A program made the position numbers and the translations under genes. From NCBI GenBank assembly GCA_021732745.1, contig JAKFUK010000002.1:868001-932000 (forward strand): a stretch of 64,000 bases of DNA, given 5' to 3'. Origin of the DNA: Nevskia sp. (lineage in GTDB: Bacteria > Pseudomonadota > Gammaproteobacteria > Nevskiales > Nevskiaceae). Shown here piece by piece: positions 1 through 20,508 of the stretch. Position 1 is the stretch's first letter. The number at the start of each line of letters is the position of its first letter. The notes under the pieces were generated by a model. That model was not told the DNA's origin. It saw only the letters and a list, made by a program, of their open reading frames with translations, and ran no database searches.

Positions 1-1184
1 TCCGCCACCGCTTCTTCATGCACCGCGACATCGGCGTCCGCCATCCGGCTCGCCAGTTCCCGATCCCAGGATGCGGCAACGGCAGCACCGGCAAGCCCTT
101 GGGTGCCGACGTGCGGCTGATAGTCGGACGCGCTGAAACACCAGGGCTGTGCGGCAAAGCGGCTCATCATGAAATTGCCGATGGCGATGCCGGGCCAATC
201 GAAATCGCCGTGATAAAGCAATTGCGCGCCGGCCTCGATCAACTGCCGCAGCAGCGCCTGCTGGGCGGCGGCGGGCATGCCGTCGGTGCAGACCAGCGGC
301 GCGCAGGCGGCACCCAGGCGATCTGCGGCCAGCGCGACGATGCTCGGGTTCTCGCAGACATGGACCCTGCGGGCGGCAAGCCGCCAGCGCGGCGGCGAAT
401 GCAGCAAGGCGCGCAACGACAGATGCAGCGGCTCGCCGTGCTGGCGGGCTGTTTCAACCAGCGCGCCGACCGCCGTGTCCGCCCCCGACGACAGGTTCAA
501 GCACAGCACCGGTCGCGCCAGCGCGTTGACGGCCACGCCGAGCTGCGCCCAGCGCACCCGCGCCGATTCCGCATCTTCGTCATCAGCGGACGGCGCGCGC
601 GCATGAAGGACGAGATTCGCCAGCGGCCGGCCGGCATCAAGCGCGTGGGCATCACCAACGCTGCGCGCGGCCAGCCAGGCCAGCGGCATGCCGGGTGCCG
701 GCAGCGCGGCGATCACCGCCTGCGCCTGCGCCAGCAGTTCGGCGGCGCGCGCGGGATCGCCAGCGGCGGCGCGCTTGAGCCGTCCGAATGCGGCCGCCGT
801 TTGCAGCGAGGCGCGCAGGGACGGTTCGGCAATGCCATCGAGCAGCGCCGCCCAGGCGCGGGCCTGTGCGCTGCGCTCGGCCTTGTGATCGCGCAGCGGG
901 CCGTCGAGATGTTCGAGTGCCGCGCGCAGGCTCGGTGCCAGCCCGGCGCGGAACAGCGCTTGATCCAGCTCGGCAAGGCTCAGCCGCAGCGAATCAGACG
1001 ACCGCTTCGACGGCCTGCCCAGCAGGCCGGCGAGACTGGCGTGATCGGCAGCCGTCAGGCCCGACAGCGTGCGCAGCGCGGCCGGATCGCCGCCATCGAC
1101 ACAGCGTTCGGCCAGCCGGCGGCGCAGCGCTGCCCGTTCATCACCGCCGAGCAGACGTTCGAGCCGGGATGCGTCGAGCGTCAT
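1..1184 (-). CDS. jetD: Wadjet component JetD (DUF3323/DUF2399, Toprim-like nuclease subunit), 3' end beyond the window
   Basis: The frame is open from an ATG that overlaps the JetC stop (ATGA) to the window edge, giving 394 codons without a stop. Two stretches place it in the TIGR02679 family: CENPSI at residues 277-282, followed by an LVCTDG segment, and YHGDFDWPG around residues 324-332, the acidic GDFD being the Toprim-type metal site. In characterised Wadjet systems JetD is the endonuclease that cuts circular plasmid DNA after the SMC complex has extruded it. Only a few C-terminal residues should be missing, since family members are about 400-420 residues. It is the last visible gene of the jetABCD operon. 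Function is assigned from family knowledge plus context. Confidence 0.88.
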   Translation of the reverse strand, partial: MTLDASRLERLLGGDERAALRRRLAERCVDGGDPAALRTLSGLTAADHASLAGLLGRPSKRSSDSLRLSLAELDQALFRAGLAPSLRAALEHLDGPLRDHKAERSAQARAWAALLDGIAEPSLRASLQTAAAFGRLKRAAAGDPARAAELLAQAQAVIAALPAPGMPLAWLAARSVGDAHALDAGRPLANLVLHARAPSADDEDAESARVRWAQLGVAVNALARPVLCLNLSSGADTAVGALVETARQHGEPLHLSLRALLHSPPRWRLAARRVHVCENPSIVALAADRLGAACAPLVCTDGMPAAAQQALLRQLIEAGAQLLYHGDFDWPGIAIGNFMMSRFAAQPWCFSASDYQPHVGTQGLAGAAVAASWDRELASRMADADVAVHEEAVA

Positions 1185-4100
1185 TCCAGCGCGATGCCGT
1201 CGGCGGCGACCGGCGGCAGCCGCCGCGCCGGATCGGGCTGCGGCTGGCGGCTGCGGCCGTCCCACTGCCAGCGCGAGACGTACACCGCGTCCAGCCCTTC
1301 CTGACGCTGTAACTGGCAGATCGCGACACCCGGCAAGGTCGCGTAGCAGCCCCATTCGCGTTCGCTGGTCATCACGAAGTCCAGATCGAACTCGCGGATC
1401 AGCGCCATGCAGTGGCTGCGCGCTTCGTCGTCGATGCCGGCGAAGGCTTCGTCGAGCAGCACCAGCCGAGGCGCCAGCGGCGATTCGCAACTGCCGTAAT
1501 GGCTGGCGGCGGCGGCGAACAGCGGCACCGTCAGGCTCAGCGCCCGCTCGCCGCTGGAGGCTGGGCCGGCCAACGTCTTCCACTGGCCGTCCTGCTGGCG
1601 CTGTACCCGGAAGCGATGCCAGAGGCGGTAGTCGAGTGCTGCCGCCAGATGCTCGGCGAGCGTGCCGCCGCGATCCTGCGCCCGCTCGCTGGCAATTCGC
1701 GCCTGCAGAAAAGCGCCGACCGCCTGCCGATCCTCCGCAGACCAAGCGTCGACGCTGCGATGGATCAACGTCTTGCGCACGGCTTCGAAGCCGGCGGCGG
1801 CTTCGGCGCTGTCATCGGCCGTCGTCTCCCAGCTCAGCCGGAAACGCACGCCGGTGCTGGTCGGGTGGCGATGCAGTTCGCGGTTGATGTCGGCAACCTG
1901 CCGCTCGGCCTCGCGCAGCAGCCGTTGCAGGCTGACCGCGACTTCCGCCTGCAAGTGGTTCTCCATCACTTCGCGTTCGCGGGCAGTGAGAATGCTGCGC
2001 CTCTGTTCGATCTCGTCGGCCAAGATCTGGCTCAGCCGGTCCGGCCGCTCGGCGCGATTCTGCCAGCGCACTCCGACGATCAGGCCGTAGTCGCTCTGGC
2101 TCATCGCCGCCTGCTGGCCCTGCGCGGTCAGCGCAGCACCGAGCGCGGTGTAGTCCTCGGCCACCTTGCTGCGAATGCGCGTCCAGGCCGCGTCGTCGTC
2201 ATCCACTTGCACCAGCAACGCCTCGGCGCGGCGCGCCAGATTCAGGGCGGCATCGACCAGCCAGTTGGCTGGCATCGCCAGTTCCGGCAGCGCCACCGCC
2301 AGCAAGCCGGTGTCGGCAAAGCCCTGCAATTGCGCGGCAGCGGCCAGACGCGCCTTGCTGCCTTCGACCAGGCGCGCTTCCTTTTCGACCACTCGTTGCT
2401 GGCTGACCGCATGGGTCTCGCCGGACTTTTTGGCTTCCTCGCGGGCGAACTTGAGCGATTTTTCGCCTGCGATCACCGCCTGACCGAGTGCGGCCAGCTT
2501 TGCCTTCAGCGCATCGACGCTGCTGCCGAGCGTGTCGCGCAGCACATCGCGGCTGGCGTTCGCGGCGCGTTCGGCGTCCTGGCGGCGTTCCAGTTCGGCT
2601 TCCCGATTGGTCAGATCGTCGCGGGCAATCGCTTCCCGTTCCTGCTGGCCCGCCTGTTCCTCGGCGGCGCGCAGCCGGTCGCGCTGGGCCTGCGCCAGTT
2701 GCTGGATCGCTAGCCGATAGTGATGAATCTCTTGAGCGATGGCTTGAAGCTCAGCTTCATCGACCGGCAACTCAAGATCGTCGGCATCTGATTCGAGCTG
2801 TCGCTGTGCCGCGAGCAGCGCTTGCCGCGCGGACTCGAAGGCGGTGTCGGCAGCCAGCAGGGCTTCCTGCGCGCGTTCGTGGGCGGCGCGACAGGCAGAC
2901 TGCTCCGCATGCGCCTTGCGCAGCGCGCCGTCGTCCGGCGCGCGCTCCGCTTCGGCGTCGAGTGCGGCGCGGCTTGCCAGCAGTGCGCGCCGCTGGTCGC
3001 CGATCTGCTGCACGGCGCTGGTGATTTCCGCCCGCAACGTCGCAAGTTCCGCCAGGCGCTTGAGCCGGGCCGCTTCACGCGCCGTGGCCCCGATGAACTC
3101 GGCCTGCGGCTTGGCCCAGCGGCCACTCAGCGGGCCGAGGCGATACTCGCCCGCGGTCGAAAACCAGGCTTCGGCGCTGCCATCGTCGGTCTCTGCGCAG
3201 CCGATGCCGGCCAGCAGGGCGTCGATGCGGGCGGTATCGACAGCGGCATTGGGCGTGGCCCGCAGCAGGCGTCCGAGATTCGCAGCCTGCGGCATACGCG
3301 CACCGAGCAAGGCATCGAAAGTGCCGGCATCGAGCAGCGCGCCGTTCGGCGTCACCCAGGCATCGAGCAGACCCGCCGCCTGCAAGCCGGCTTCGAGGCC
3401 CGCGCGCGCCGCATCGTCCAGTTCCGGGGCGAATTCGATCAGCGCCCACAGCGGCGCGCCGGATCGCGTGCCGCGGCTGGCTGCGTCGCGCGTCGGCGAC
3501 AGCGGCGGCTCCGGCTGGCGTCCATCGAGCAGGCGCGCTTGTTCGGCAGCCAGCGGCGCGTCCTGCTGGCGCAGCGCCTGCTCGCGGCTGTCGGCATCCG
3601 CTAGCCGGTTCGCGAGCCGCGTGCCGGCTTCGCGCCGCGCGGCATCGACTGCGGCGCGGGCCGGGTTCGGGCCGGTCTGGGTGACCAGCCATTCGGCCAG
3701 CAGATCAAGCGCGCCTTCGGATTCCGGCAGTTGCAGATGAACCAGCCCTTGCAGGTAATCGCGCCACGCCGCGAGCAAGACAGCCGTCGCCCGCTCCAGC
3801 GCCTGATACGCCGCTTGCGCCGCACGCTCGGCCTGCGCGGCGGTGTTGGCGTGGACATCGCGTTCGCCGCGTCGGCGCTCCAGCGCCTGGCGCGCGTGCT
3901 CGCGTTCCTTCAACCGACTGCGCAGGTGTGCGAGCTGCTCGTCGCGACGCGCGGCAAGCTGGCGCAACGCTGCCTGAAGTTCGTCCGGCGCGACCGGCTT
4001 CATCAAGGCCAGATGCGGCTCGCCGATGCCGCAGGCGCTGGCGATCTCGTGCGCGGCGCGGCTGGCGCGGCCGGCTGCAACCTCGGCTTTCAGCAGCTCG

Positions 4101-5257
4101 TCGGCGCGAACTCGGGTCTTTTCGATTTCGGCCATGCAACGCCGCTGCGCGATATCGCGATCGGCCCGCGCCTGCCCGGCTTCGCGCTGGCGGACCACCG
4201 CTTCACGCTCGGCCTTTTCCAGCCGGCTGGCGTCGAGATTGGCCGGGTCGGACTTCAGCGCGTCAAGCGCGGCCCGGTCGTGTTGCCATTGCCCGTCGAT
4301 CGCGGCGACGGCCTGTCCGGCAGCGGCAGCAGCGGCACCGTCGGCACGCTCGGCGTCGCGGGCGGCGTTGACCTCGCCGCTGGCGCGATCGAACTCGGTC
4401 TGCGCCTGGCGCAGCACTTTCGCCTGACGCCGCGCCTGCACCTGCGCATAGCGGCAATAGCGTTCGGTGAACTCGGCGACCGCCCGGTGCAGGCGCTCGT
4501 AGCCGCCCAGCTCATCGCGATAGGCGTCGAGCTGGTTCATCGCTTCGGCAACATCGCCGACCACCCCGGCAGCCAGCGGAGGCAGCGCGTTCGACAACGC
4601 ATCGGACAGACTGCCTTCGTCCGGCTTCTTCGACAGCTGCGGCTGGCGTAACTGGATCAAGAGATCGATCAGCGCGCCGTAGCGGGTCTCGCCAAGCCGG
4701 AACAGGCGCTCGTCGACGGCGCGGCGATAGGCGTCGGCGCGATCGAAGTACAGGCCGCCAGCGGGCTCAATCGCCAGCCGCAGTTGTTCGCGGTTGAGCA
4801 CGCTGCGATTGCTGCCGATCAGCCACAGCGACTCGCCAATCCGCTGCGGGGTGATGAAGTGCCAGCGATCGACCTGCGCCCGGCCCTGCACGGCGGCGAG
4901 GCCGCAGCCCAAGGTCAGGTAGTGCGGCTGGCCTTGCTCGTCGAGCCGCCCGAACTCGATCCAGGCGTAGCCGCTGCGCCGCTCGTGACGGCCCATCAGC
5001 AGGTTCCAGTCCATGCGCTTGCCGCGGTCGCCGTCCGGCTCGACACGGGCCGACGACAGTTGCGCATCGAGCAGGAAAGGCAGGGTCAGCGACAGCACCT
5101 TGCTCTTGCCGGAGCCGTTGTTGCCACGCAGCAGCAGGTGGCCGTCGTGGAAGTGGAATTCCTCGCTGTCGTAATGAAACAGCTCGACCAGACCAATGCG
5201 CAGCGGCTGCCAGCGCGTGCGCACGGGGATCGGCAACGGCGGCGGCGCGCTGCTCAT
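1181..5257 (-). CDS. jetC: Wadjet component JetC, MukB/SbcC-like SMC ATPase (TIGR02680)
   Basis: This 1358-residue protein has the layout of an SMC-type ATPase. A Walker A motif (GNNGSGKS, residues 45-52) follows a short N-terminal segment. Long Ala/Arg/Glu-rich coiled-coil stretches fill the middle. The C-terminus carries the ABC signature SSGERALSL (from about 1233) and Walker B RLVLLDEAF (about 1263-1272). In Wadjet the JetC dimer, with kleisin JetA and KITE-like JetB, extrudes DNA loops and hands small circles to JetD for cleavage. Both ends overlap the neighbouring jet genes by 4 bp, which indicates translational coupling. The ATPase motifs look intact, so the system is probably active. 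Confidence 0.92.
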   Translation of the reverse strand: MSSAPPPLPIPVRTRWQPLRIGLVELFHYDSEEFHFHDGHLLLRGNNGSGKSKVLSLTLPFLLDAQLSSARVEPDGDRGKRMDWNLLMGRHERRSGYAWIEFGRLDEQGQPHYLTLGCGLAAVQGRAQVDRWHFITPQRIGESLWLIGSNRSVLNREQLRLAIEPAGGLYFDRADAYRRAVDERLFRLGETRYGALIDLLIQLRQPQLSKKPDEGSLSDALSNALPPLAAGVVGDVAEAMNQLDAYRDELGGYERLHRAVAEFTERYCRYAQVQARRQAKVLRQAQTEFDRASGEVNAARDAERADGAAAAAAGQAVAAIDGQWQHDRAALDALKSDPANLDASRLEKAEREAVVRQREAGQARADRDIAQRRCMAEIEKTRVRADELLKAEVAAGRASRAAHEIASACGIGEPHLALMKPVAPDELQAALRQLAARRDEQLAHLRSRLKEREHARQALERRRGERDVHANTAAQAERAAQAAYQALERATAVLLAAWRDYLQGLVHLQLPESEGALDLLAEWLVTQTGPNPARAAVDAARREAGTRLANRLADADSREQALRQQDAPLAAEQARLLDGRQPEPPLSPTRDAASRGTRSGAPLWALIEFAPELDDAARAGLEAGLQAAGLLDAWVTPNGALLDAGTFDALLGARMPQAANLGRLLRATPNAAVDTARIDALLAGIGCAETDDGSAEAWFSTAGEYRLGPLSGRWAKPQAEFIGATAREAARLKRLAELATLRAEITSAVQQIGDQRRALLASRAALDAEAERAPDDGALRKAHAEQSACRAAHERAQEALLAADTAFESARQALLAAQRQLESDADDLELPVDEAELQAIAQEIHHYRLAIQQLAQAQRDRLRAAEEQAGQQEREAIARDDLTNREAELERRQDAERAANASRDVLRDTLGSSVDALKAKLAALGQAVIAGEKSLKFAREEAKKSGETHAVSQQRVVEKEARLVEGSKARLAAAAQLQGFADTGLLAVALPELAMPANWLVDAALNLARRAEALLVQVDDDDAAWTRIRSKVAEDYTALGAALTAQGQQAAMSQSDYGLIVGVRWQNRAERPDRLSQILADEIEQRRSILTAREREVMENHLQAEVAVSLQRLLREAERQVADINRELHRHPTSTGVRFRLSWETTADDSAEAAAGFEAVRKTLIHRSVDAWSAEDRQAVGAFLQARIASERAQDRGGTLAEHLAAALDYRLWHRFRVQRQQDGQWKTLAGPASSGERALSLTVPLFAAAASHYGSCESPLAPRLVLLDEAFAGIDDEARSHCMALIREFDLDFVMTSEREWGCYATLPGVAICQLQRQEGLDAVYVSRWQWDGRSRQPQPDPARRLPPVAADGIALE

Positions 5258-6441
5258 GAGGCCAGCAGCGAGGTTTGGGTGAGGCGCGGCTCGGCCAGCG
5301 AATAGCGCAGCAACGCCGGCCGGGCAATCACCGCCGCGCCGTCGCGGCGCACCAGCTTCAGCGCTTCAAGCTGATCGACGGCCTGCCGCACCAGCCCGCG
5401 CTCGGCACCTGGCTCGCGGGCGTCCTTCTTCCAGTAGCGGCCGAAGGATGCGGCCATCAGCCGGACGTGGTGTTGCAGCGCCAGTTCGGTGACCGCCAGC
5501 CCCGGCTCGCTGCGCGCATGTGCAGCCAGATGCTCGGCGACCAGCAGGGTGACATGGGCTTCCGTGCCTTCGGCCGGCATCATCGCGTCGGTCAGGCTGC
5601 CGTCCTCGTCGATCAGCGCCACGCCCTCGGACCGCTGTTCGGGCAGCAGACCGGTGAACTCGGCCAGACGCGCCGCCAGTGGCCCGCGCTGATTGGCAAG
5701 GTAGTCGCGTTCGTCATCGTCCAGCTCGTCGAAATAGACCACCGGATCGTCGAGCAGCCGCCGGCTCAAACGATGGCGCAGGCGGTTGCGGCGTGACTCC
5801 GGCGCATCGAGCACCGGTTCGTCGGCCAATGCGGCGAGCCGCGCGTCGAGCGTGGCGGGTGCCTCGCCGGCAGCAAAGGTCGAAGGCCCGCGCAGGCCGG
5901 CGAACAGCATCGCCAGCAAGCGGCGCTGCACGTCGTAGAGCGCATCCGAGGCCGCACCGCCCTCGCGGGTGTAGGCGTCCTCGTCGCCCTCCACCCGGTG
6001 CAGCACGCCGAGCGCGATCAGGCGTCGGCAGACGAACACCAGATCACGGCGTTCGTGGGCTTGATCGAGCGTGAAACTGAAACCGGTGGCGAGGAGTTCC
6101 GGATCGGCGGCCAGTTCCAGCAGCCGGGTGCCGAGTTCGCGCAGGGTGATCTGCACCTCGGCCCGTTCCAGCACCGCGCAGACCAGACAGAACAGCACAC
6201 TGCGCTGGCGGGCGTCATCGTCGCTGCCGCGGGTGGCGTCGGCGGTATCGGCCGGGCGCTTGTACAGGCGCGCGCCTTCGCGTTCGAGCCCCAGAGTCCA
6301 GCCGGCTTCGCACGACAGCCAGACGCGCAGCGCATCGGCATGCCGCCGCACCAGCGGATAAGCCGGATCGGACGACGACAGCAGTGGCCGCATCAGCAGC
6401 GCATGCAGCGCGCGGCGGCGTTCGTCGTCGGCCGGGCTCAC
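5254..6441 (-). CDS. jetB: Wadjet component JetB (DUF2398/TIGR02678, MukE-like)
   Basis: A 395-residue protein matching the TIGR02678/DUF2398 family in length and in segments such as the N-terminal RRALHALLMRPLL and the central LDDPVVYFDELDDDERDYL. Wadjet JetB proteins are winged-helix KITE subunits that bridge kleisin and SMC heads. The start codon overlaps the jetA stop and its own stop overlaps the jetC start (4 bp each), the arrangement expected for subunits made in fixed proportion. No catalytic motif is expected or seen. The assignment relies on family resemblance and the unmistakable SMC and JetD neighbours. Confidence 0.87.
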   Translation of the reverse strand: MSPADDERRRALHALLMRPLLSSSDPAYPLVRRHADALRVWLSCEAGWTLGLEREGARLYKRPADTADATRGSDDDARQRSVLFCLVCAVLERAEVQITLRELGTRLLELAADPELLATGFSFTLDQAHERRDLVFVCRRLIALGVLHRVEGDEDAYTREGGAASDALYDVQRRLLAMLFAGLRGPSTFAAGEAPATLDARLAALADEPVLDAPESRRNRLRHRLSRRLLDDPVVYFDELDDDERDYLANQRGPLAARLAEFTGLLPEQRSEGVALIDEDGSLTDAMMPAEGTEAHVTLLVAEHLAAHARSEPGLAVTELALQHHVRLMAASFGRYWKKDAREPGAERGLVRQAVDQLEALKLVRRDGAAVIARPALLRYSLAEPRLTQTSLLAS

Positions 6442-7928
6442 GCGAGGCTGATGGTCAGCAGGTGATCGCGGCCGGAAAGTGTGCCGTCATCGGTGTCGAT
6501 GCTGGCCATACCCGGCAGCGGCTTCAAGGTGATGCGCAGACTGCCGTCGGTGGTCAGCCGCTGCACCTCGGCTTCAGGGCCGGGCTGCGCCGCCAGCGCT
6601 TCGCCGATCACGCCGAGCAGCAATCGGAATTCCGGCCGTTGCAGCCAGCCGAGCTGCGACAGCGGCCGTGGCTCGCCGGTGGCCAGACGAGCACGCGCGG
6701 CTTCGGCCTGCTCGCGCTCCTCGGCCAGCCTTGCGGCCAGCAATTGCCGCTCGCGCGAACGATCCTGCACCTTCGCCGCCGGGCCGCGCGGGGTCAGCGT
6801 GGCGCGCTCGCGCAGTCGCGGCGAGATCGCCACCGCACCCGCCCGCGCCCAGGACGTGCTGGCCGGCACGTCGGCCTCGACTTTCAAAGCCAGATGCCGG
6901 GCCGAATTCAGCGCGAAAGCCGCGCGATGCAGGCGATGGGCGGCGGCTTCGTCCTCGCATTCGGCAAACCAGCGGGCCAGCACGCGGTAATCGGCAGAAC
7001 GATCGCTCTTGCCGGCCCTGCGTTCATTGACTGTGCCGATGACCGCCAGCAACGCCGGTATCGCCGCGCGGGCACGGGCTCTGAGCAATTCCGATTGCGC
7101 GGGATTGCGTTCGTCGCCGACGAACCAGCGGCTCAAGCCCTGCCAGCGCTCGCGCCAGCCATCGCGCTTGAGCGCGAAGGCTTCCGCTTCAGCGAGCGGA
7201 TCGTCCGGCGCGGCATCGCGGGCTTCGCGGCGGGCGGCGATGGTGGTCAGGCGTTCGGCCTGCGGCTGCAAGTCCAGCAGCAACTGCGCGATGCGCCCGG
7301 AGCGGCTGACCAGATCGCCGATGAAGCGTTCCAGATAACCGAGCAGCCGATCCTTGTAGCGCAGCACTTCGGCAACCTCGGCGCGTTGCAGATCGACGCT
7401 GCGAGCGAGCCCGGCCATGAAGGCCTGGGCGTTGTCGGCGAGATCGGCAAAGCGCTGGACCAGATCGCGCAGCGCTTCGTGAATCTTGGCGGCATCCGGT
7501 TCGGCTTCGTCGGCAAGCTGGGTGAGCGTCTGCAAGCGGCCGAGGATGTCTTCCAGCGCTACCGATTGCAGCTCGCCCCGCCGCGCCAGCGCCTCATGAA
7601 AGCGCTCCATCGCCCGCTCGACCGCTTCGCCGCCGTGGCTCAGGCGATACAGGAAACGCGCACGGTAGAAATCCTCGATCGACGACACCCGCGCAGTGTC
7701 CGGCTGGGCGATCACATTGCCCCAGTCCTGTAGCTGACCGAGCATCTTCTGGACCTCGTCGATGGTCGGCCGCTCACCATCCGGCCAGCGCGCGAGCGCC
7801 TGCACCTCATCCGGCCGCAGGTGCAGGCGGAACTGCCGTTCGGCATCGGCGAACACGGTCATGATCGCGCGGTAGTGAGCGGCCTTGTCGGCCGTTACGT
7901 GGCGGAAGAGTGTGGTGGCTTCGCTCAT
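6438..7928 (-). CDS. jetA: Wadjet component JetA (DUF2397/TIGR02677, kleisin-like)
   Basis: A 496-residue protein of the TIGR02677/DUF2397 family. The N-terminus (LFRHVTADKAAHYRAIMTVF, then LRPDEVQALARWPDGERPT) is typical. It is rich in helices, as expected for a MukF-like kleisin that links the two SMC heads. It is the first gene of jetABCD and begins 21 bp after the stop of the upstream AlbA_2/HATPase gene. The DUF2397/DUF2398 composition corresponds, to my knowledge, to the Wadjet type II class rather than the DUF3375/DUF4194 class. No strong Shine-Dalgarno precedes the ATG, so expression may depend on reading from the upstream genes. Confidence 0.87.
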   Translation of the reverse strand: MSEATTLFRHVTADKAAHYRAIMTVFADAERQFRLHLRPDEVQALARWPDGERPTIDEVQKMLGQLQDWGNVIAQPDTARVSSIEDFYRARFLYRLSHGGEAVERAMERFHEALARRGELQSVALEDILGRLQTLTQLADEAEPDAAKIHEALRDLVQRFADLADNAQAFMAGLARSVDLQRAEVAEVLRYKDRLLGYLERFIGDLVSRSGRIAQLLLDLQPQAERLTTIAARREARDAAPDDPLAEAEAFALKRDGWRERWQGLSRWFVGDERNPAQSELLRARARAAIPALLAVIGTVNERRAGKSDRSADYRVLARWFAECEDEAAAHRLHRAAFALNSARHLALKVEADVPASTSWARAGAVAISPRLRERATLTPRGPAAKVQDRSRERQLLAARLAEEREQAEAARARLATGEPRPLSQLGWLQRPEFRLLLGVIGEALAAQPGPEAEVQRLTTDGSLRITLKPLPGMASIDTDDGTLSGRDHLLTISLA

Positions 7929-7949: not shown

Positions 7950-9107
7950 TCAGAACGTAGTGCGGTAAATAATGACCGTGAACTGTTGCGCTTCTCGCTG
8001 GTCCAGAAAATCAATATGCGGATGGAGCTTCAAGCTGCGCGAAATGCCCGAACCAAGGCCGCGATACGGTAGCAACTGAGTTGCATGTGAGAAGATCACC
8101 GGATTGCGGACATTCGAGATGCCGTGGCGGATGTTCTCCACCGTCAGATGATTTGGAAGATGCCCAGGGCTGATCACCTCGAGGCGGTCTGCCAGCATCA
8201 GCAGGCGGATTGGCGCATTGATGAAGTAATCGCGATGAACCAGGGCGTTGACCAGAATTTCCTGGAGAACTTCGGGCGGAATCTCGAGCTCGCCAGTGCT
8301 GTTGAAGTTCTGGTCTGCCTGCACCGAGCGCAAATTGCGACGCAGGAACGCCATGGCTGACGTGTATTGATCGACCAGTGTACCGGCCAGATCCACGCTT
8401 TCATCGTAGACGGTATCACGCCAGTCGGTTCCTGGAAACGCGACCGCCTTGATCATGGCCGTAGGCAAAAACTGTTGTGGGATACTTCCAAACATCAGAA
8501 GGCCCGCGCGATTAAGTTGTCCATTCTCGGTCGCAAGCTGCAGATTCGCGAGCAGCCTCGTCATGGGCACACCAGAGCGTTCCGTCGTCTCGGAGTAGCG
8601 CCTTTCGTAGTAAGTCGTAAAGCGGCGCGCATCCAGATGCGCCAGCGTGGAACCAGCGATTGGAGTCTCGTCGGCGTAGATCAGATCTGCTGCCTGGAAC
8701 ATGCGACGCAGCTCTTCGATTGCCGTCACATGTCTCTTGTCAGCGCCATTCTTGACCCAGATACGGCCATCTTTGTCGGTGTACGGACGATTGACGCCAG
8801 GAGTTATCTGGACCGCGATGACAACACCGGAAGCCGTGGCGATATTCGAGGTCAACGGATTGATTGGCGGGCGGACCCCTTGCGACGCCGTGTTGGACAG
8901 AAGCTGATTGATACGTGAGACCGCAGTCGAGTCAAGCCCGGAAAGACTGCCGTCGTCTTCTACACCGATCAAAAGAACACCACCCGCCGAATTGGAAAAG
9001 GCCACAAGTTCGGCCGCGAGCTGGTCGGGGCTATGCAAATCCCGCTTGAATTGATGTCGACTATCCTCGCCGCGCGCGATGACTTCGAGCAGCTCCGTCA
9101 AGTCCAT
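7950..9107 (-). CDS. Schlafen AlbA_2 domain plus GHKL-type ATPase protein
   Basis: A 385-residue protein with an N-terminal Schlafen/AlbA_2-type domain (about 10-130; DSRHQFKRDL, then AGGVLLIGVEDDG at 41-53) and a C-terminal GHKL ATPase-like domain. The ATPase part shows an N-box EILVNALVHRDY (283-294), a DRLEVISPG box (307-315) and a glycine-rich YRGLGSGISR (348-357). Proteins of this build (COG2865-like) are usually called predicted transcriptional regulators, but AlbA_2 domains also occur in anti-phage systems as nucleic-acid-binding or nuclease-like modules. It overlaps the PHP-ATPase gene by 10 bp and lies 21 bp before jetA. Base composition is AT-richer than that of the jet genes. Function within the island is not known. 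Confidence 0.8.
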   Translation of the reverse strand: MDLTELLEVIARGEDSRHQFKRDLHSPDQLAAELVAFSNSAGGVLLIGVEDDGSLSGLDSTAVSRINQLLSNTASQGVRPPINPLTSNIATASGVVIAVQITPGVNRPYTDKDGRIWVKNGADKRHVTAIEELRRMFQAADLIYADETPIAGSTLAHLDARRFTTYYERRYSETTERSGVPMTRLLANLQLATENGQLNRAGLLMFGSIPQQFLPTAMIKAVAFPGTDWRDTVYDESVDLAGTLVDQYTSAMAFLRRNLRSVQADQNFNSTGELEIPPEVLQEILVNALVHRDYFINAPIRLLMLADRLEVISPGHLPNHLTVENIRHGISNVRNPVIFSHATQLLPYRGLGSGISRSLKLHPHIDFLDQREAQQFTVIIYRTTF

Positions 9108-11746
9108 CGCTGATAGACCTCTTTGCGACGCTCGAAGGCTTCGCGCCCACCCTCCATTATGTCGACGATGGCCTTCTGAATTTCAGGCACATCGACACTG
9201 CCGGCCGCGATCGCCATGTCACCCTCGTTGCGGCAGACGATGACCTGCTCCGCGTCGCCGAGCACAGGGAAACTGGCGTTGTGGGTCGCCAACACGAATT
9301 GCATGGACGGCTTCAGATTTCGCACCCGCGAAATCACTTCCGCGTAAAGCGTCTGATTGTCGAGATCATCTTCGGGTTGATCGATAATCAGCATATCGTG
9401 ATCGTTCTGGCTAAGAATAAACAGGCTTAGTGCCTGCGCCCGCTGGCCGAGAGAGTGATCATGGAGCGGCTTGCCGTGATAGCTGATGTGATAGGCATTT
9501 GACGGCTGCCAGACCAGCAACGCCTTCAACTGCTCGTTGAAGCGGCTCCGGAAGGCTTCGGCACGACCGCCAGCCAGCGTGGAGGCCGCGTCGATATCCG
9601 CATGCACTTGAGCGAAATCTGCATAGCTCTTTACCAGATCGGCAAAGAAGGACTCACGAAGGCCGCTGCCGCGGAACATCTCCTGCGCGAACTGCTTAAA
9701 CCCAGCCTTGTCACCCTTGAACTCGACGCCAACCTGCAGAGGACCTGAGCGGTCGTTGACTGCATTGATCAACGTCTTGATCGTGTTGAATTCTTCCAGC
9801 CAGAGACCGTTCAGACTTGACAGCGCCCTGAGCACCAACTCACGAGCCTGCGCCTGCCGGCTTGTTTTCTCCTTGAGCGATGCAAGCAAACCTAGTAGTT
9901 GCTCTTCCTTGACCTTGAGCACGCGAAACGCATCCGGCGTAATGCTGGTCACTCCGCGCTGTGCCAGTTCGGCTGACATTGCACGCTCAATCTGGGCAAA
10001 GCTTTCTCTCTGGCCGTTGCGCAGCTCCGCGAGTTCTTCGCGCAGACCTTGCAGAACGTCGAGTGAGGCCCCGGCCTGTTTCTCAGCGGCGGCCACCGAT
10101 TGCAAGGAAACCTGGAGGCCAGCACAGGCCTTGCGGTAACGATTCGTGAAATCCACCTGATCAGGCGGCGCCGGTGTATTTACATTGAGAAGCTCGGATT
10201 CATGCTCGCTGCGAACCTCCGCCAGCGCCGTCTTCCAACGCCGGACCGATGTCTCGACATCGCCCGCACGCTTTAGCGACTGATCGTAAGCAATCTGCGT
10301 CTTGAGCTGTTGCTCGATACCGTACTGGCTATAGGTCTTGAGCTGAAACTGGACACTGTCGAGCTGGCTCTGATATTCAGCTTGCTTGTCCGAATCCTGC
10401 GCCAGCCGGATAAGCGCTTCGATGCTTTCCTGAGTCAAAATTTGCTGTTGCCGGATGCGCTGCCGGACATCGTGCAATTGCTCGCCCACGAGCTTGTCCA
10501 CAAGATCCTGGCCGAAGCCGTCGCCTTGAACGGCCAGATCCTTCTGACCGAAGTACAGCGGTTTGCGCAGGATCGCTTCTCGCAGCGCGGCACCGGGCTG
10601 CAATTCGCCGTCCAGATAAACCTCGGCGCGCTCGCCTAGAATTCGACGAATCTCAAAACGTCGTCCGTCACGGTCTTCCGCCTCGATAGTGATCTTGCCT
10701 CCGCTGCCAAGAAAGTATTCCTTGAGCAGCTTCGTTTTGTAACTTTCGTCAGGTGTGCCGACACTCAGTTCCAGACCCAAACCATAGCGCAAGGCTTCGA
10801 GCACGGAAGACTTGCCGCTGCCGCGAATGCCGATCAGACAATTCAGGTGCGGCGACAGATCAATCCGCTTGCCATCGAGGCGGCCGCCGCTGAAGCGGAT
10901 GGCCCGAACATGGGAATGCGCATGCTTGCGCGGCACCGCACTGACTCGGCTCGCATGGTCAAGCAGCGCGTCGTGCACTGCGGAAAATCCGAAGTGGCCG
11001 ATTTTGAGATAGCACTTCCTGCCGCGACCAATCTCGTCGACACGCTTTGCATCGCAGCCCTCAACCTCGGCAGGGTAGGCAGGTCCGAGCCAGTTCTTGA
11101 CTTTTACACGACATTTTTCATCTGGCTTGTCGTGCGTCCTGACTTTTTGAAATGCCAGAACGTGTCGCTGAAATTCAGGATTTTTCGCCAGATCACCAAT
11201 GCGGCCACCATCGAACTCCGACCACAGACCGCTTGGGGCTTCGACATGAGCCATCACGCAAAAAAATGGTCGGTGGCATTCCGACAATTTTCGCAGTACA
11301 TCGATTAAACCGAAGTTGCAGCGACCATTCTCATGTTCATACTGAGCCGGCGACTTGCCGAGAAAGACCGCACTCAAGAACGGATTGATGTAGTCGCTCC
11401 CTGCTTCGATCCACTCGTCCCCGAACACCACCAGCATATGAATGCCGTTGGCTCCGTCGTTCACGGACAGCTCAACTCCGGGCAGCAGGCAAACCCCTCG
11501 CTTCCGAGCCGCTTTTCTTAGAATCCGAAACTCGTCCGCGCTGAACTTGTTGTGGTTGGTGATGACGCCGATGCGAATGTCCGCCGATACAAGCGCATCA
11601 AGATAGCGGCTCACAAACCGTTCAGCATCATCAGCCCGCTTTTCGAATTCTCCGTCTGCGCAGGTGTGAAGATGAAAATCCGCGCGCAGCCACTCGCTGC
11701 CGTGCGCGAACAAAGCTTCATCGAAGAAATTCTGGGCAGCGTCCAT
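9098..11746 (-). CDS. PHP-domain/SMC-like ATPase fusion (TrlF/Ppl-like), candidate defence protein
   Basis: An 882-residue fusion. The N-terminal PHP domain (about 1-270) has the metal motifs DFHLHT (H25, H27), TNHN (H65), PGVELS (E92) and MAHVE (H167). The rest is an SMC/RecN-like ATPase with Walker A GIRGSGKSS (306-314), long coiled coils (about 430-680), an ABC signature-like SLGQRAQAL, Walker B LIIDQPEDD (about 786-794) and an ATHN switch (about 821). The pairing suggests an ATP-gated phosphoesterase or nuclease acting on nucleic acid or nucleotides. PHP-ATPases of this layout are known as TrlF-family proteins, and one (Ppl) was reported as anti-phage. It starts 20 bp after thiC with no clear Shine-Dalgarno and overlaps the AlbA_2 gene. 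Confidence 0.85.
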   Translation of the reverse strand: MDAAQNFFDEALFAHGSEWLRADFHLHTCADGEFEKRADDAERFVSRYLDALVSADIRIGVITNHNKFSADEFRILRKAARKRGVCLLPGVELSVNDGANGIHMLVVFGDEWIEAGSDYINPFLSAVFLGKSPAQYEHENGRCNFGLIDVLRKLSECHRPFFCVMAHVEAPSGLWSEFDGGRIGDLAKNPEFQRHVLAFQKVRTHDKPDEKCRVKVKNWLGPAYPAEVEGCDAKRVDEIGRGRKCYLKIGHFGFSAVHDALLDHASRVSAVPRKHAHSHVRAIRFSGGRLDGKRIDLSPHLNCLIGIRGSGKSSVLEALRYGLGLELSVGTPDESYKTKLLKEYFLGSGGKITIEAEDRDGRRFEIRRILGERAEVYLDGELQPGAALREAILRKPLYFGQKDLAVQGDGFGQDLVDKLVGEQLHDVRQRIRQQQILTQESIEALIRLAQDSDKQAEYQSQLDSVQFQLKTYSQYGIEQQLKTQIAYDQSLKRAGDVETSVRRWKTALAEVRSEHESELLNVNTPAPPDQVDFTNRYRKACAGLQVSLQSVAAAEKQAGASLDVLQGLREELAELRNGQRESFAQIERAMSAELAQRGVTSITPDAFRVLKVKEEQLLGLLASLKEKTSRQAQARELVLRALSSLNGLWLEEFNTIKTLINAVNDRSGPLQVGVEFKGDKAGFKQFAQEMFRGSGLRESFFADLVKSYADFAQVHADIDAASTLAGGRAEAFRSRFNEQLKALLVWQPSNAYHISYHGKPLHDHSLGQRAQALSLFILSQNDHDMLIIDQPEDDLDNQTLYAEVISRVRNLKPSMQFVLATHNASFPVLGDAEQVIVCRNEGDMAIAAGSVDVPEIQKAIVDIMEGGREAFERRKEVYQRWT

Positions 11747-11766: not shown

Positions 11767-13689
<1,923 letters not shown>

Positions 13690-17684: not shown

Positions 17685-19691
17685 TCAGTGCGCGTGCGAT
17701 CTAACCGAGCTCTTTACATCTCCGTCATACCGCAAGGACACCGTCATCGAATCGAATTGCAAGCCGGGACGATCTTCAACGGCAACCAAAACGCCATCCG
17801 GAGATCCCCTCGCCGGAAAGATAGCGATCTCTATGTTCGATCGTGGTCCGGAAGTACCTCCCGCAGCGGCCGCCAACACATCAAAAATTGGCTCGGTCAC
17901 ATCTACTAGCGAGTCAGACTGATGATGGTTGCCATTGTTATCACTACCTCGAATCGGAGTGGCAAAATTGCTGATTGTCGATAGATAGCGCCAAGGTACG
18001 CTCGAGCAACGCATTGAATCCCAGCAGGCACGACCGGCGACGACATAAACACCGGAACCCTTCGGTGTTTCGAGTAAGCGTGTCCGATCAAGGCTCAGCA
18101 CTACGGCACGTCGTCGCAATTTCTCCCGCTGGAGCTTGGAAAGTGATTTCCAAGACTCCCGTAACCGACGCTGGGTTTGCTTACCGATCCGTACATCGGC
18201 AAGCAGGATGCTAAAGCGAGCACCCGATCCGACCACCGTGAGTTGACCGTCCCGGCTCGCGAACCGCCGCTGCCAACTGGAATCACCCGACATCACACCC
18301 AAATGCACGACGGCACTCTTGTCGATCGCCCCAATCAGCTTCGAAACGTCAGGCGGTGGCTGGGATGGAGGCGATGGCAGCACTACTCGATCATAGAGAT
18401 AGCCAAGTCGTATAGATGGATCTACCTCGCCAACCACGGTGGGCGCGACATCCAAAAAGGGCGGCTGGTACCAGACAACGCGATCTCCGCAAACCACTGG
18501 GAAACGTGCTCGTTTCAAGATCCATGCTTTCTCCAAGGCCGAGCCGATTCCGGCCTGCTGGTTCAAATCGTTAGCGACTTCCGCTCCCCGCCCGGTGACC
18601 GCAGCAACCCAAGCGACGAGTAACTGGTCGACATAAGAATGGTGGACCCAGAAAGCGGGATCAAAGACTGCCGAGTGCGGCTTAAACATCCAGCCGGTTC
18701 CTTTCCCTCCGGGAGAAAATCCAGTCCCACCGACAGCGGTGTGAATCCCATCATGCCAAGTAGATTCAAGTTCTAGATTGAAACGGACAAAGTCAGAATG
18801 CGTCATATCTATTGGCAATATGCCTCGCACCGGCGTCCATAGCGGAGTCCCTGTGCGCGTCGCGGCAGCACGAAAATCAACGTAGAGTGGATTGGGATGA
18901 CCACGATCTGTATCCTCGTCGAGGTGCAATTCCGATTCTTTGATCGGGCAGTCAAGTTCCGAAGGAACTGCATCTCGGCAGCGCAGGGCGTTCGGGAACT
19001 GGCGTAACTCGACCCAGTTCCAATATGGAATTCCGACGCCCTCCCTTGCCAGTACATGAGTTTCAGGGTGAGCCGCCAACAAGGAATTCACGCTGATCTC
19101 GAAAGCACGAACATAGGCTCGATGCCAGAGCAGGAACAGCGGTCCATCGCGTAGATTATTGGAAATGCCGTGTACGCAGCTATCCCATAAACGGATCGAC
19201 TGGTCACCGGTACCATCGTCTTCCGGTTGTTCCGGCTTGAGTCGATGCGGACTCGGATGACCGTGTATTGCCCGGATGGCCTCATATGCGTCGAGATTCA
19301 AAACCCGACGCGAATCGCTTTCACGGCTACCATCACGCGACTTCAAGATGGCTACCGCTGTCTTGATCGCTGCACGATCTCGTACCGCAACCTCCGACGA
19401 ATCATTGATATCGCGACGTACGACTCGACTACGAAGCACGATGCGGTCGACGACCTCGCCACCAGCGAAGTCATTCGGCTGTGCATCAGGATTGCCATCA
19501 TTATCGGCATCGGTCCTACCTTCCCAAGAAGCTTCGCAGACTGCTACGCCATCTGCCTTCACGTCTCCAGAAGACCCCCACAGATAAAGTAACAGCACAA
19601 TGATCGCGAACATTGACGCGAACAGGCTTATCCAAGGTAGCTTCCAGGCTGTGAACCGACGCACTGATCGCGGCTCAGGAGACGACATCAT
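17685..19691 (-). CDS. Membrane-anchored tyrosinase-family copper protein
   Basis: A 668-residue protein. One N-terminal transmembrane helix (about 20-38) places the rest in the periplasm. A short Asp-rich calcium-type repeat (TDADNDGNPD, 60-69) follows. The tyrosinase core has CuA ligands around HGH (143-145), H174 and H190 (FLLWHRAYVRAFE) and CuB ligands H313/H317 (HDGIH) and H350 (DPAFWVHHSYVD), so both copper sites seem intact. After about residue 430 is a further 240-residue region I do not recognise. Tyrosinases oxidise phenols, but the substrate is unknown. The start overlaps the preceding gene by 17 bp. Base composition is AT-richer than in flanking rlmJ. Confidence 0.8.
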   Translation of the reverse strand: MMSSPEPRSVRRFTAWKLPWISLFASMFAIIVLLLYLWGSSGDVKADGVAVCEASWEGRTDADNDGNPDAQPNDFAGGEVVDRIVLRSRVVRRDINDSSEVAVRDRAAIKTAVAILKSRDGSRESDSRRVLNLDAYEAIRAIHGHPSPHRLKPEQPEDDGTGDQSIRLWDSCVHGISNNLRDGPLFLLWHRAYVRAFEISVNSLLAAHPETHVLAREGVGIPYWNWVELRQFPNALRCRDAVPSELDCPIKESELHLDEDTDRGHPNPLYVDFRAAATRTGTPLWTPVRGILPIDMTHSDFVRFNLELESTWHDGIHTAVGGTGFSPGGKGTGWMFKPHSAVFDPAFWVHHSYVDQLLVAWVAAVTGRGAEVANDLNQQAGIGSALEKAWILKRARFPVVCGDRVVWYQPPFLDVAPTVVGEVDPSIRLGYLYDRVVLPSPPSQPPPDVSKLIGAIDKSAVVHLGVMSGDSSWQRRFASRDGQLTVVGSGARFSILLADVRIGKQTQRRLRESWKSLSKLQREKLRRRAVVLSLDRTRLLETPKGSGVYVVAGRACWDSMRCSSVPWRYLSTISNFATPIRGSDNNGNHHQSDSLVDVTEPIFDVLAAAAGGTSGPRSNIEIAIFPARGSPDGVLVAVEDRPGLQFDSMTVSLRYDGDVKSSVRSHAH

Positions 19692-20496
19692 CCACGCGAT
19701 CCATATCGTCTTTCTGTTCCTGCGTAGGCTTGTGAGCCAAGTATTTTTTCTTTTCGGCCTTGATGGCGTCCGGCTTTTTATCGTCCGAAAACATCACGAT
19801 ATCCGCTGGGACATGTGTAGGGATAATCGTGGAAACATCCTTGCCTTTGTATTTTCGCTTGCTTTTACCCGATTCGAACATCATCAGCGGTGCATGCATA
19901 GCCAGCTTCGCAGCGACTGCGGCAGCAGCACTCGCGATTGTCGCCTCAGTTGTCGCAAGTTCGAGCAGTTGATTAGCTGCGGAGACGACGGCATGCGCCT
20001 GAACGGAAATTTTTGCAGTAGCTGTCTTCGCCGCATCGAGAGCCGCTGAAGCGACAACTGCGCTGGCAAACGATGCCTGAGTAGCAACGACCGCAGATCC
20101 TGCAAGCGCGGCCGCGGCAGCAAAACTCGAGCCTGACAGGTAAGTCGGCCTGCATACTGCAGTGGCCGCAGACGCACCGAACTTCCAAGTGTCGAATGCT
20201 TCAGCATCAGAATTTTTTGCTACACCTAAAGGACTCGATGAAGCTTCGAGTTCTTCCAGTTTATCTTTAAGTGCCTCCTTGTTATCGGAGTTGCCAAGAA
20301 AATCGTACTGCTGCTTGTCTAGTATGCTTTTATTAGTAGTACCAGACCTGAAGACCAGATGATCTCCTCCGTCCGCAACTACTTGGTAAACAGCTGACAA
20401 CCCCCCTGGCACCCCATCAAACGCTTTCTGAAATGCCGCGAGTATGGATACATATTTAGCTGGCTTGGCAGCTGGATTCAGCAACATCGTAGGCAT
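19675..20496 (-). CDS. Unknown Ala-rich protein encoded between a kinase and a tyrosinase
   Basis: A 273-residue protein I do not recognise. The N-terminal third is mixed (PAAKPAKYVSILAAFQKAFD). Residues about 110-205 are very rich in alanine, serine and valine with short hydrophobic runs (SSFAAAAALAGSAVVAT; ATIASAAAAVAAKLA), possibly a long amphipathic helix or a membrane-interacting segment. The C-terminus is charged and lysine-rich. No signal peptide is evident. It is flanked by a 12-bp gap to the kinase and a 17-bp overlap with the tyrosinase, so the three genes almost certainly form one operon. Confidence 0.65.
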   Translation of the reverse strand: MPTMLLNPAAKPAKYVSILAAFQKAFDGVPGGLSAVYQVVADGGDHLVFRSGTTNKSILDKQQYDFLGNSDNKEALKDKLEELEASSSPLGVAKNSDAEAFDTWKFGASAATAVCRPTYLSGSSFAAAAALAGSAVVATQASFASAVVASAALDAAKTATAKISVQAHAVVSAANQLLELATTEATIASAAAAVAAKLAMHAPLMMFESGKSKRKYKGKDVSTIIPTHVPADIVMFSDDKKPDAIKAEKKKYLAHKPTQEQKDDMDRVDDVVS

Positions 20497-20508
20497 CTTC
20501 TAGGCTCC

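What the first reader, a model, noticed from the sequence alone, without database searches (positions are those of the whole stretch)
7950..11746. Two-gene PHP-ATPase plus AlbA_2/HATPase unit: candidate undescribed defence system
Two overlapping genes encode a PHP-metallophosphoesterase/SMC-like ATPase fusion (882 residues, all ATPase motifs seen) and a Schlafen-AlbA_2/GHKL ATPase (385 residues). They sit directly before a Wadjet operon. PHP-ATPases alone (TrlF/Ppl type) are known or suspected anti-phage proteins, but I know of no described system pairing one with an AlbA_2/HATPase partner. Two ATPases plus two possible nucleic-acid-processing domains suggest a sensor-effector arrangement.
Basis: partly seen in the sequence, partly recalled or inferred. 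Interest (0 to 1): 0.85.

Follow-up and report, generated by a model that had tools for sequence, protein, structure and literature searches.

The report
TrlF–TrlG operon, probable phage-defence module
Two overlapping bacterial genes, already in print as a growth-arresting "temperature restriction" pair, turn out to travel together across many phyla and to sit inside other antivirus operons, which makes them a likely but untested phage-defence module.

Summary
The genes are real, at the stated coordinates, directly upstream of a Wadjet operon. The 882-aa protein passes NCBI's TrlF cut-off (471 vs 350 bits) and fails the Ppl cut-off (158 vs 1000). The 385-aa protein is AlbA_2 + GHKL ATPase. The pairing is not unknown: it is the trlF-trlG pair of the Photorhabdus TRL operon (PMC7554251, 2020), where trlG changes relieve growth arrest at 36 °C. 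A 2025 paper noted very probably the same pair between hsdS and hsdR. In the parts I read neither calls it a tested defence system, and no PADLOC 2.0.0 model recognised it.

New here: 60 of 80 TrlF loci carry an adjoining TrlG, in 13 named phyla; TrlF and TrlG distances correlate (r = 0.95); 31 of 66 pairs lie in or beside type I R-M, BREX, type IIG-like or Wadjet genes, against 0 of 20 control stretches. In the window's clade the second Schlafen catalytic Glu is replaced, nearly always by Gln, and a PHP ligand is Lys; another clade lost the PHP HxH motif but keeps both AlbA_2 glutamates. TrlR of pYR3 has the RptR defence-repressor signature.

Reading: a nested defence module, TrlF sensing and TrlG arresting growth. 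Defence is likely; the chemistry is open.

The parts
9098..11746 (-). trlF: 882-aa PHP-domain / SMC-like ABC ATPase fusion, TrlF family
   Evidence: NCBIfam NF045780 471 bits, cut-off 350; 46 relatives aligned; AlphaFold2 mean pLDDT 84.2
10937..11695 (-). PHP part of TrlF (about residues 18-270): H25-x-H27, D31, N64-H65, E92, H103, H167, D232-x-K234; the last canonical His is Lys
   Evidence: conserved columns; domain limits are approximate; which residues are PHP metal ligands is recalled from the literature
10808..10831 (-). Walker A of TrlF (residues 306-313, GIRGSGKS)
   Evidence: G306, G311, K312, S313 in 66 of 66 paired rows
9359..9457 (-). ABC signature (HSLGQR, 764-769) to Walker B (IIDQPEDDLD, to 796) of TrlF
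   Evidence: S765, G767, Q768, D789, Q790, E792, D794, D796 in 66 of 66 paired rows
7950..9107 (-). trlG: 385-aa AlbA_2 (Schlafen-like) + GHKL ATPase protein
   Evidence: Pfam; 66 pairs in hand, the window's included; AlphaFold2 mean pLDDT 89.6; best Foldseek matches 3lmm chains, then SLFN14, further Schlafens and a SAMD9 tRNase domain
8727..9068 (-). AlbA_2 domain of TrlG (residues 14-127); E14, Q19, D51 align with SLFN13 E205, E210, D248
   Evidence: the residue match is read by eye from the alignment
8031..8261 (-). GHKL ATP-binding region of TrlG (residues 283-359; E283, N287, G315, G350, G352)
   Evidence: the motif names are recalled
9098..9107 (-). 10-nt overlap of trlF stop and trlG start (translational coupling likely)
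   Evidence: the 66 pairs overlap by 10-31 nt, except one gap of +26 (L042, where the start was not found)
11767..13680 (-). thiC; trlF starts 20 nt after its stop codon
   Evidence: Pfam ThiC_Rad_SAM 6.4e-187; thiC found in 16 of 18 genomes of the genus, the window's included
6438..7928 (-). jetA (Wadjet), 21 nt after trlG
   Evidence: PADLOC JetA2 8.5e-185
5254..6441 (-). jetB (Wadjet)
   Evidence: PADLOC JetB2 4e-125
1181..5257 (-). jetC (Wadjet SMC)
   Evidence: PADLOC JetC2, E = 0
1..1184 (-). jetD (Wadjet), 3' end about 30 nt beyond the window's left edge (L187:7970-9184)
   Evidence: PADLOC JetD2 7.3e-123

Best explanation
The locus is a divergent member of the trlF-trlG module, and that module is most probably an antiviral growth-arrest system. 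Proposed working: TrlF, an SMC-like ABC ATPase with a PHP domain (architecture of the anti-phage exonuclease Ppl), senses an infection signal such as DNA ends or nucleotide depletion; TrlG, an AlbA_2 protein driven by a GHKL ATPase, is the arm that stops growth. Shown here by computation: architecture, overlap, co-variation, nesting in R-M and BREX operons. Shown by others: TRL- and TrlG-dependent growth arrest in Photorhabdus. Inferred: phage as the trigger, TrlF as sensor, TrlG as effector, and that the Photorhabdus temperature phenotype is auto-activation. Probability that it is a defence module: about 0.8. Probability of this division of labour: about 0.45.
For: Adjoining same-strand TrlG in 60 of 80 relatives. 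TrlF-TrlG distance correlation 0.948 over 40 dereplicated pairs, 0 of 2000 permutations as high. 31 of 66 pairs have type I R-M, BREX, type IIG-like or Wadjet genes within 5 kb; 22 of the 34 with at least 2 kb on both sides (cluster identities); 0 of 20 control stretches, 385 kb. Several are nested: hsdR-trlF-trlG-hsdS with 4-nt overlaps, and PglX-trlF-trlG-PglX-PglZ in three loci. PrrC-like genes lie near in 9 loci. TrlF relatives, paired or not, are on 1136 plasmid records (222 with at least 80% of the query covered) and 7 phage records. Solo TrlF also lies between hsdS and hsdR (L112, L244). In Photorhabdus trlG mutants and the operon deletion grow at 36 °C, and the cloned operon restores the arrest; the 11 published missense positions map to residues identical in the window. 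TrlR of pYR3 has the RptR residues and three sites 9 nt apart.
Against: My searches showed no phage test of the pair. AlbA_2 position 19 is never Glu in this clade (Gln in 64 of 65), and E205A and E210A abolished SLFN13 activity, so TrlG may not be a Schlafen-type RNase. The PHP site also carries a change (K234). 18 of 78 testable relatives lack TrlG (three of them with under 1.2 kb behind trlF), so TrlF can probably work alone. TrlG relatives of 40-61% identity without TrlF occur in chromosomes. 35 of 66 pairs had no such neighbour found, 23 of them on short flanks. The window lacks TrlR. Some tolerant Photorhabdus isolates had no trlG change; they did not regrow at 36 °C after freezing, and two had fur or spoT changes. 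The mapping of the published positions used L072 numbering, not the Photorhabdus sequence.
Confidence: 0.5

Rival explanations
1. Toxin-antitoxin-like guard: TrlG is the toxin and TrlF restrains it; attack on the host R-M/BREX system or on TrlF itself releases TrlG.
For: The authors report changes in trlG and none in the longer trlF, as expected if TrlF loss does not relieve arrest. Nesting inside hsd operons beside PrrC-like genes resembles the PrrC guard arrangement (the PrrC guard model is recalled).
Against: TrlF is often alone (18 of 78 testable loci), unusual for an antitoxin; TrlG-like proteins also exist alone in chromosomes; TrlF keeps conserved ATPase motifs and most PHP residues.
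Confidence: 0.22
2. TrlF is the DNA-attacking effector, a Ppl-like 3'-5' exonuclease, and TrlG is an ATP-driven accessory clamp or specificity factor.
For: Ppl is reported as an ssDNA 3'-5' exonuclease gated by NTPs (review PMC12904381, passages). The window's clade keeps H25, H27, D31, H65, E92, H103, H167, D232 while AlbA_2 has lost E19. TrlF occurs without TrlG.
Against: D-x-H is D-x-K in 65 of 66 paired rows. Clade B TrlF lost the HxH motif in 8 of 8, so PHP catalysis seems dispensable there. Photorhabdus suppressors spare trlF.
Confidence: 0.2
3. A stress or temperature regulator of growth, as the TRL authors propose, not antiviral.
For: Transcription rises on temperature up-shift and the operon restricts growth at 36 °C (PMC7554251).
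Against: Patchy distribution, plasmid and phage carriage of TrlF relatives, nesting in R-M and BREX operons; a defence-type repressor (RptR) signature in the pYR3 TrlR.
Confidence: 0.07

Closest known systems
TRL operon trlR-trlF-trlG of Photorhabdus laumondii (PMC7554251)
   Same: Same two proteins: TrlG with AlbA_2 (14-128) and HATPase_c_4 (298-365), and an upstream 'histidinol phosphatase' TrlF; 11 of 11 published missense positions fall on residues identical in the window.
   Different: No trlR in the window; the genes follow thiC and precede Wadjet; TrlF is at most 49% identical to any other row of the tree. The Photorhabdus sequences themselves were not on hand.
[quoted passage not shown]
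   Same: Very probably the same pair, reported between hsdS and hsdR in four genomes.
   Different: Function called unknown there; no sequences in the section read, so identity is inferred from annotation wording and position.
Ppl, single-gene anti-phage PHP-ATPase
   Same: PHP + SMC-like ATPase architecture; PADLOC Ppl model 132 bits in two stretches.
   Different: Fails the NCBIfam Ppl cut-off (158 of 1000 bits); has a conserved partner gene.
Schlafen / SAMD9 AlbA_2 RNases; DIP2311 (3lmm)
   Same: Fold match, and alignable E14 and D51.
   Different: Second catalytic Glu is Gln; a GHKL-type ATPase follows, a combination that 3lmm shares by sequence alignment.
PrrC anticodon nuclease in hsd operons
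   Same: PrrC-like genes lie near the pair in 9 of the loci with type I R-M genes.
   Different: Different proteins; a guard role of TrlFG is untested.

Membership tests
TrlF family (NCBIfam NF045780) | score over curated cut-off 350 bits | tested here: met
   471.3 bits, residues 15-879
Ppl (NCBIfam NF042955) | score over curated cut-off 1000 bits | tested here: not met
   157.8 bits
TRL operon (trlR-trlF-trlG) | trlF followed by trlG with AlbA_2 + HATPase_c_4 | tested here: met
   Pfam boundaries nearly equal to the published ones
TRL operon (trlR-trlF-trlG) | trlR regulator gene upstream | tested here: not met
   thiC ends 20 nt upstream of trlF
TRL operon (trlR-trlF-trlG) | temperature-dependent growth arrest | not testable with these tools
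   needs experiment
Schlafen-type AlbA_2 RNase | three acidic catalytic residues (SLFN13 E205, E210, D248) | tested here: not met
   E14 and D51 present, second position Q19; Gln in 64 of 65 TrlG rows with a letter there, Lys in shortened L089, never Glu
GHKL ATPase | N-box E..N and glycine boxes (recalled) | tested here: met
   E283, N287, G350, G352 in 64 of 64 and G315 in 65 of 65 rows with a letter there
PHP metallo-enzyme | HxH, D/H, H, E, H, H, DxH ligands (recalled) | tested here: inconclusive
   8 of 9 positions kept; final His is Lys
Anti-phage defence system | protects against phage | not testable with these tools
   indirect support only: neighbourhood and mobility
PADLOC-DB 2.0.0 named system | a model that recognises the pair | tested here: not met
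   best matches Ppl 132 bits and pAgo 56 bits, both partial; the same two models lead for the IncC pair
DefenseFinder system | a model that recognises the pair | not testable with these tools
   library not on hand
Wadjet (neighbour) | jetA-D in order | tested here: met
   JetA2, B2, C2 and D2

The most novel reading that the evidence does not exclude
TrlF-TrlG is a very widespread antiviral guard module that nests, translationally coupled, inside R-M and BREX operons, in some hosts under a defence-island repressor, and whose catalytic centre has shifted during evolution: canonical PHP residues with an intact AlbA_2 partner in one group, a destroyed PHP HxH motif with both AlbA_2 glutamates kept in another, and a Glu-to-Gln AlbA_2 with a Lys-bearing PHP in the window's clade. 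Photorhabdus 'temperature restriction' would then be auto-immunity of a phage-defence system.
Probability: 0.4. Interest if true: 0.78.

Novelty: new member of a known kind. Interest (0 to 1): 0.56.

Why it matters
It links literatures that, in the parts I read, do not name each other: a heat-linked growth arrest in an insect pathogen (2020), an unexplained gene pair in hsd operons under RptR (2025; the word TrlF does not occur in it) and Schlafen-type genes in BREX (2026). If right, a known growth-restriction phenotype is the visible cost of an antiviral system, directly testable with a cloned two-gene operon. The group-wise changes in the two candidate active sites say which residues to test to learn which protein is the effector. 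The pair already sits on conjugative plasmids (for example IncC) and in 38 of 5,426 E. coli complete genomes (close relatives of the IncC copy only), so it may shape phage sensitivity of common strains.

Tried and rejected
Rejected: (1) chance adjacency: recurs in 60 of 80 loci. (2) 'Ppl': cut-off not met. [quoted passage not shown] (4) PADLOC candidate PDC-M49 as the same pair: only weak partial PDC-M49A hits to TrlF, and no PDC-M49 hit to TrlG. (5) A regulatory RNA or clear promoter before trlF: no Rfam match at gathering score in the window; 3 promoter-like sites in 5-15 kb against 1.4 (sd 1.4) in shuffles, none of them on the minus strand. (6) TrlG always needs TrlF: no, solo relatives exist. 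(7) A replacement partner in solo loci: none recurrent among the two nearest genes on each side.

Led nowhere: the scan of viral contigs with the window protein alone. Literature: in the listings no title or abstract beginning names the pair a defence system; several listings were cut (13: 30 of 39; 17: 25 of 39; 19: 20 of 28; 22: 30 of 419; 102: 20 of 25). [quoted passage not shown]

Limits of counts: the 80 loci are the best of 420, so remote TrlF forms are under-represented; searches give the wider family. Only five of 1136 plasmid records were opened with the pair in mind (three paired, two solo), and three phage records. Of the 7 phage records two cover at least 80% of the query and two match only 13%; the Yersinia phage is there twice. 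Neighbour clusters were chosen after looking, and the control used cluster members and JetA-C as queries, so the contrast flatters the positive set; control stretches come from class, order, genus and phylum genomes, hardly from the same genomes. Cluster names rest on one representative each. Of the 31, L071 counts through a helicase cluster without a PADLOC match that co-occurs with the type IIG cluster in 4 of 5 loci, L072 through a short fragment, and L081, L114 and L119 through short pieces near contig ends. The phylum survey examined 27 loci of 32 matches over the cut-off (the window's own, the 28th, was counted with the class); L249, called 'up', is a large ORF overlap and was taken as a pair; L232 has its partner 297 nt away. 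Trees are quick searches with SH-aLRT only. L035 and L036 were left out of the tree, and L230 (a fragment) out of the tree.
Full report
WHAT IS THERE. On the minus strand the window carries, in transcription order, thiC (13680-11767; Pfam ThiC), a 20-nt gap, an 882-codon gene (11746-9098), a 10-nt overlap, a 385-codon gene (9107-7950), a 21-nt gap, and jetA-jetB-jetC-jetD. All lie on one strand with almost no space between them. I found no promoter-like site on this strand between 5 and 15 kb and no Rfam element in the window. The two genes have about 57% G+C, against 68-71% over the Wadjet genes and 62-67% over most of the rest. None of the 17 other species of the genus searched carries TrlF. 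thiC was found in 16 of 18 genomes of the genus, the window's included. In two of the 18 congeneric thiC loci fetched (L267, L269) DNA downstream of thiC matches sequence that in the window's genome lies about 1.9-2.3 kb beyond the left window edge, past jetD; the other loci showed no match on that side within their 1.5-kb flanks. TrlFG plus Wadjet therefore look like an insertion, or successive insertions, behind thiC.

IDENTITY. The large protein matches NCBIfam TrlF over its whole length (471 bits, cut-off 350) and falls far short of Ppl (158 of 1000). Pfam sees only the ATPase in it. The small protein is SLFN_AlbA_2 plus HATPase_c_4. AlphaFold2 gives fairly confident models (mean pLDDT 89.6 for TrlG, 84.2 for TrlF). 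Foldseek places the TrlG model nearest DIP2311 (3lmm), then human SLFN14 and other Schlafens and a SAMD9 tRNase domain.

THE PAIR IS CONSERVED. A scan of the genome collection (one genome for each of 84,980 species) found 420 relatives of TrlF; the best 80 were kept. In 60 of the 80 a TrlG homologue adjoins on the same strand (the test asked for the same strand); two more loci are cut at the contig end (L043, L096) and 18 are solo, three of these with under 1.2 kb of sequence behind trlF. Over all 66 pairs in hand (60, three plasmids, one viral contig, G645 and the window) the genes overlap by 10 to 31 nt, except one at +26. The paired rows come from 13 phyla by record title, many of them metagenome bins; 9 rows have no phylum name. 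The presence label needs 5 changes on the TrlF tree against 19.8 for shuffled labels. TrlF and TrlG distances correlate at 0.948 over 40 pairs dereplicated at 90% identity, with 0 of 2000 permutations as high. In E. coli 38 of 5,426 complete genomes carry close relatives of the IncC pair, and all 40 matching records hold at least 80% of the two-gene query. In an even draw of genomes by family cut-off, AlbA_2 partners follow TrlF in 12 of 20 loci (class) and 16 of 27 (phylum; 27 of 32 matches examined). The window's TrlF is a long lone branch, at most 49% identical to any other row. In the wider tree it joins a solo alphaproteobacterial form (98% SH-aLRT), and in the larger tree the 17-row solo clade (94%), which suggests that those solo forms lost trlG.

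THE COMPANY IT KEEPS. Of 66 pairs, 16 lie within 5 kb of type I R-M genes, 8 of BREX genes (PglX, PglZ or BrxC), 6 of a type IIG methylase or its helicase neighbour, and the window's lies against Wadjet: 31 in all, and 22 of the 34 pairs with at least 2 kb on both sides (cluster identities by PADLOC). The same gene sets gave no match in 20 control stretches of 385 kb; the weaknesses of that control are told under Tried and rejected. Many are nested: hsdR-trlF-trlG-hsdS-(prrC)-hsdM, with 4-nt overlaps on both sides in at least seven loci, and PglX-trlF-trlG-PglX-PglZ in three. PrrC-like genes lie near in 9 loci. Solo TrlF too sits between hsdS and hsdR (L112, L244). TrlF relatives occur on 1136 plasmid records (222 covering at least 80% of the query) and 7 phage records, two of them covering at least 80%.

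WHAT IS IN PRINT. Hapeshi et al. 2020 (PMC7554251; passages, Discussion part 1 of 2; author name recalled) named trlR-trlF-trlG. TrlG has AlbA_2 (14-128) and HATPase_c_4 (298-365). Changes in trlG, or deletion of the operon, let P. laumondii grow at 36 °C, the cloned operon restored the restriction, and the authors saw no trlF changes. Isolates without a trlG change did not regrow at 36 °C after freezing. The authors treat it as a life-cycle or stress mechanism. PMC12255303 (2025; [quoted passage not shown] RefSeq calls the two proteins 'RNA-binding domain-containing protein' and 'TrlF family AAA-like ATPase', so this is very probably the same pair. PMC12839542 (2026; passages) lists Schlafen-type genes among backup effectors in BREX. 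None of these names the pair as a tested defence system in the parts I read.

TWO LINKS MADE HERE. First, the 11 published missense positions of TrlG, placed through a relative whose numbering agrees at 11 of 13 published wild-type letters (L072), fall on residues that are all identical in the window's TrlG; 10 of the 11 columns keep one residue in at least 56 of 66 rows. The window's protein is thus likely to be a working TrlG. Second, the 79-residue protein upstream of trlF on plasmid pYR3, which I take to be the TrlR homologue that the 2020 paper reports there, has the length of RptR, carries Glu25, Glu58, Ser60, Lys61, Leu69, Ala72 and Leu74, and has three RptR-type sites spaced 9 nt apart just upstream. 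TrlR is therefore probably RptR, a repressor of defence islands. The window has no trlR, and tblastn with the pYR3 protein found no other copy in the 92 loci.

THE TWO ACTIVE SITES. SLFN13 needs E205, E210 and D248; E205A and E210A were inactive (PMC5862951, passages). These align with TrlG E14, Q19 and D51. Of 66 TrlG rows position 19 is Gln in 64, Lys in L089 (a copy shortened to 148 residues) and missing in L042 (start not found); it is never Glu. Position 51 is Asp in 47, Asn in 17 and Lys in 2. In the same clade TrlF keeps H25, H27, D31, H65, E92, H103, H167 and D232, but the last ligand of the D-x-H motif is Lys in 65 of 66 paired rows (ligand names recalled). Other forms differ. Group A (12 loci) has canonical PHP residues and E-E-D in AlbA_2. 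Clade B (8 loci, one clade at 99%) has lost the PHP HxH motif (QxN in 8 of 8) but keeps both AlbA_2 glutamates in 8 of 8. Clade D (5 loci, one clade at 100%) has D-x-K in PHP and E-E-K in AlbA_2. The two candidate nuclease sites thus decay differently in different groups. This is not a clean see-saw, since the window's clade shows a change in both.

HOW IT PROBABLY WORKS. Nesting, mobility, patchy spread and an RptR-type regulator argue for antiviral defence. The Photorhabdus genetics argue that TrlG is the arm that stops growth and that losing TrlF does not relieve it, since the much longer trlF gave no suppressor. Ppl, the nearest studied PHP-ATPase, is described in a review as a 3'-5' ssDNA exonuclease released by nucleotide depletion and DNA ends (PMC12904381, passages); TrlF may sense such signals. 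I commit to TrlF as sensor and TrlG as growth-arrest arm at about 0.45, and to 'defence module' at about 0.8. The chief rivals are TrlF as restraint on a TrlG toxin, and TrlF as the nuclease with TrlG as clamp.

VERDICT. The claim of an undescribed pairing is wrong, because the pair is in print under another function; the claim of a candidate defence system is well supported by context and, as far as my searches show, untested by experiment. The locus is a new, divergent member of the TrlFG kind. What seems new is the synthesis: the spread, the nesting, the RptR link and the group-wise active-site changes.

Noticed in passing
L188, L189, L190, L191, L193: TrlG-like proteins (40-50% identity, one with 61% over 109 residues) without TrlF beside them, all five with the same Gln (GEDS-x-x-QFK), among genes that look like ordinary chromosomal ones; L190 and L191 may be broken copies. 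A possible ancestral, non-defence role.
   Followed up: partly
L083:4237-5478, L065:11632-12891, L050, L115: A second, different AlbA_2 protein near TrlFG, in three of the four loci together with BREX genes.
   Followed up: partly
L035 (PQ189346.1), 1343-3959: TrlF-like protein split over two annotated ORFs in a 14-kb Vibrio virus classed in Vinavirales, next to a putative integrase.
   Followed up: no
L036 (NC_070913.1), 8001-10619: A Peduoviridae Yersinia phage carries a solo TrlF annotated as chromosome partition protein, between the replication and portal genes.
   Followed up: no
L033 (NC_019069.1): On an IncC plasmid the hsd operon with TrlFG lies just downstream of a TnsD-family Tn7-like gene, which suggests targeted mobility.
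   Followed up: no
L089:10616-11062: TrlG shortened to 148 residues, with Lys at position 19, beside a full-length TrlF and hsd genes.
   Followed up: partly
window 17685-23106: A tyrosinase-domain protein (668 aa), a 273-aa protein with no family match and an 865-aa winged-helix / protein kinase / TPR protein on one strand, with low G+C (55-57%) over 18-22 kb; possibly another acquired cassette.
   Followed up: no
L112, L244: Solo TrlF nested between hsdS and hsdR, so the nesting does not depend on TrlG.
   Followed up: partly
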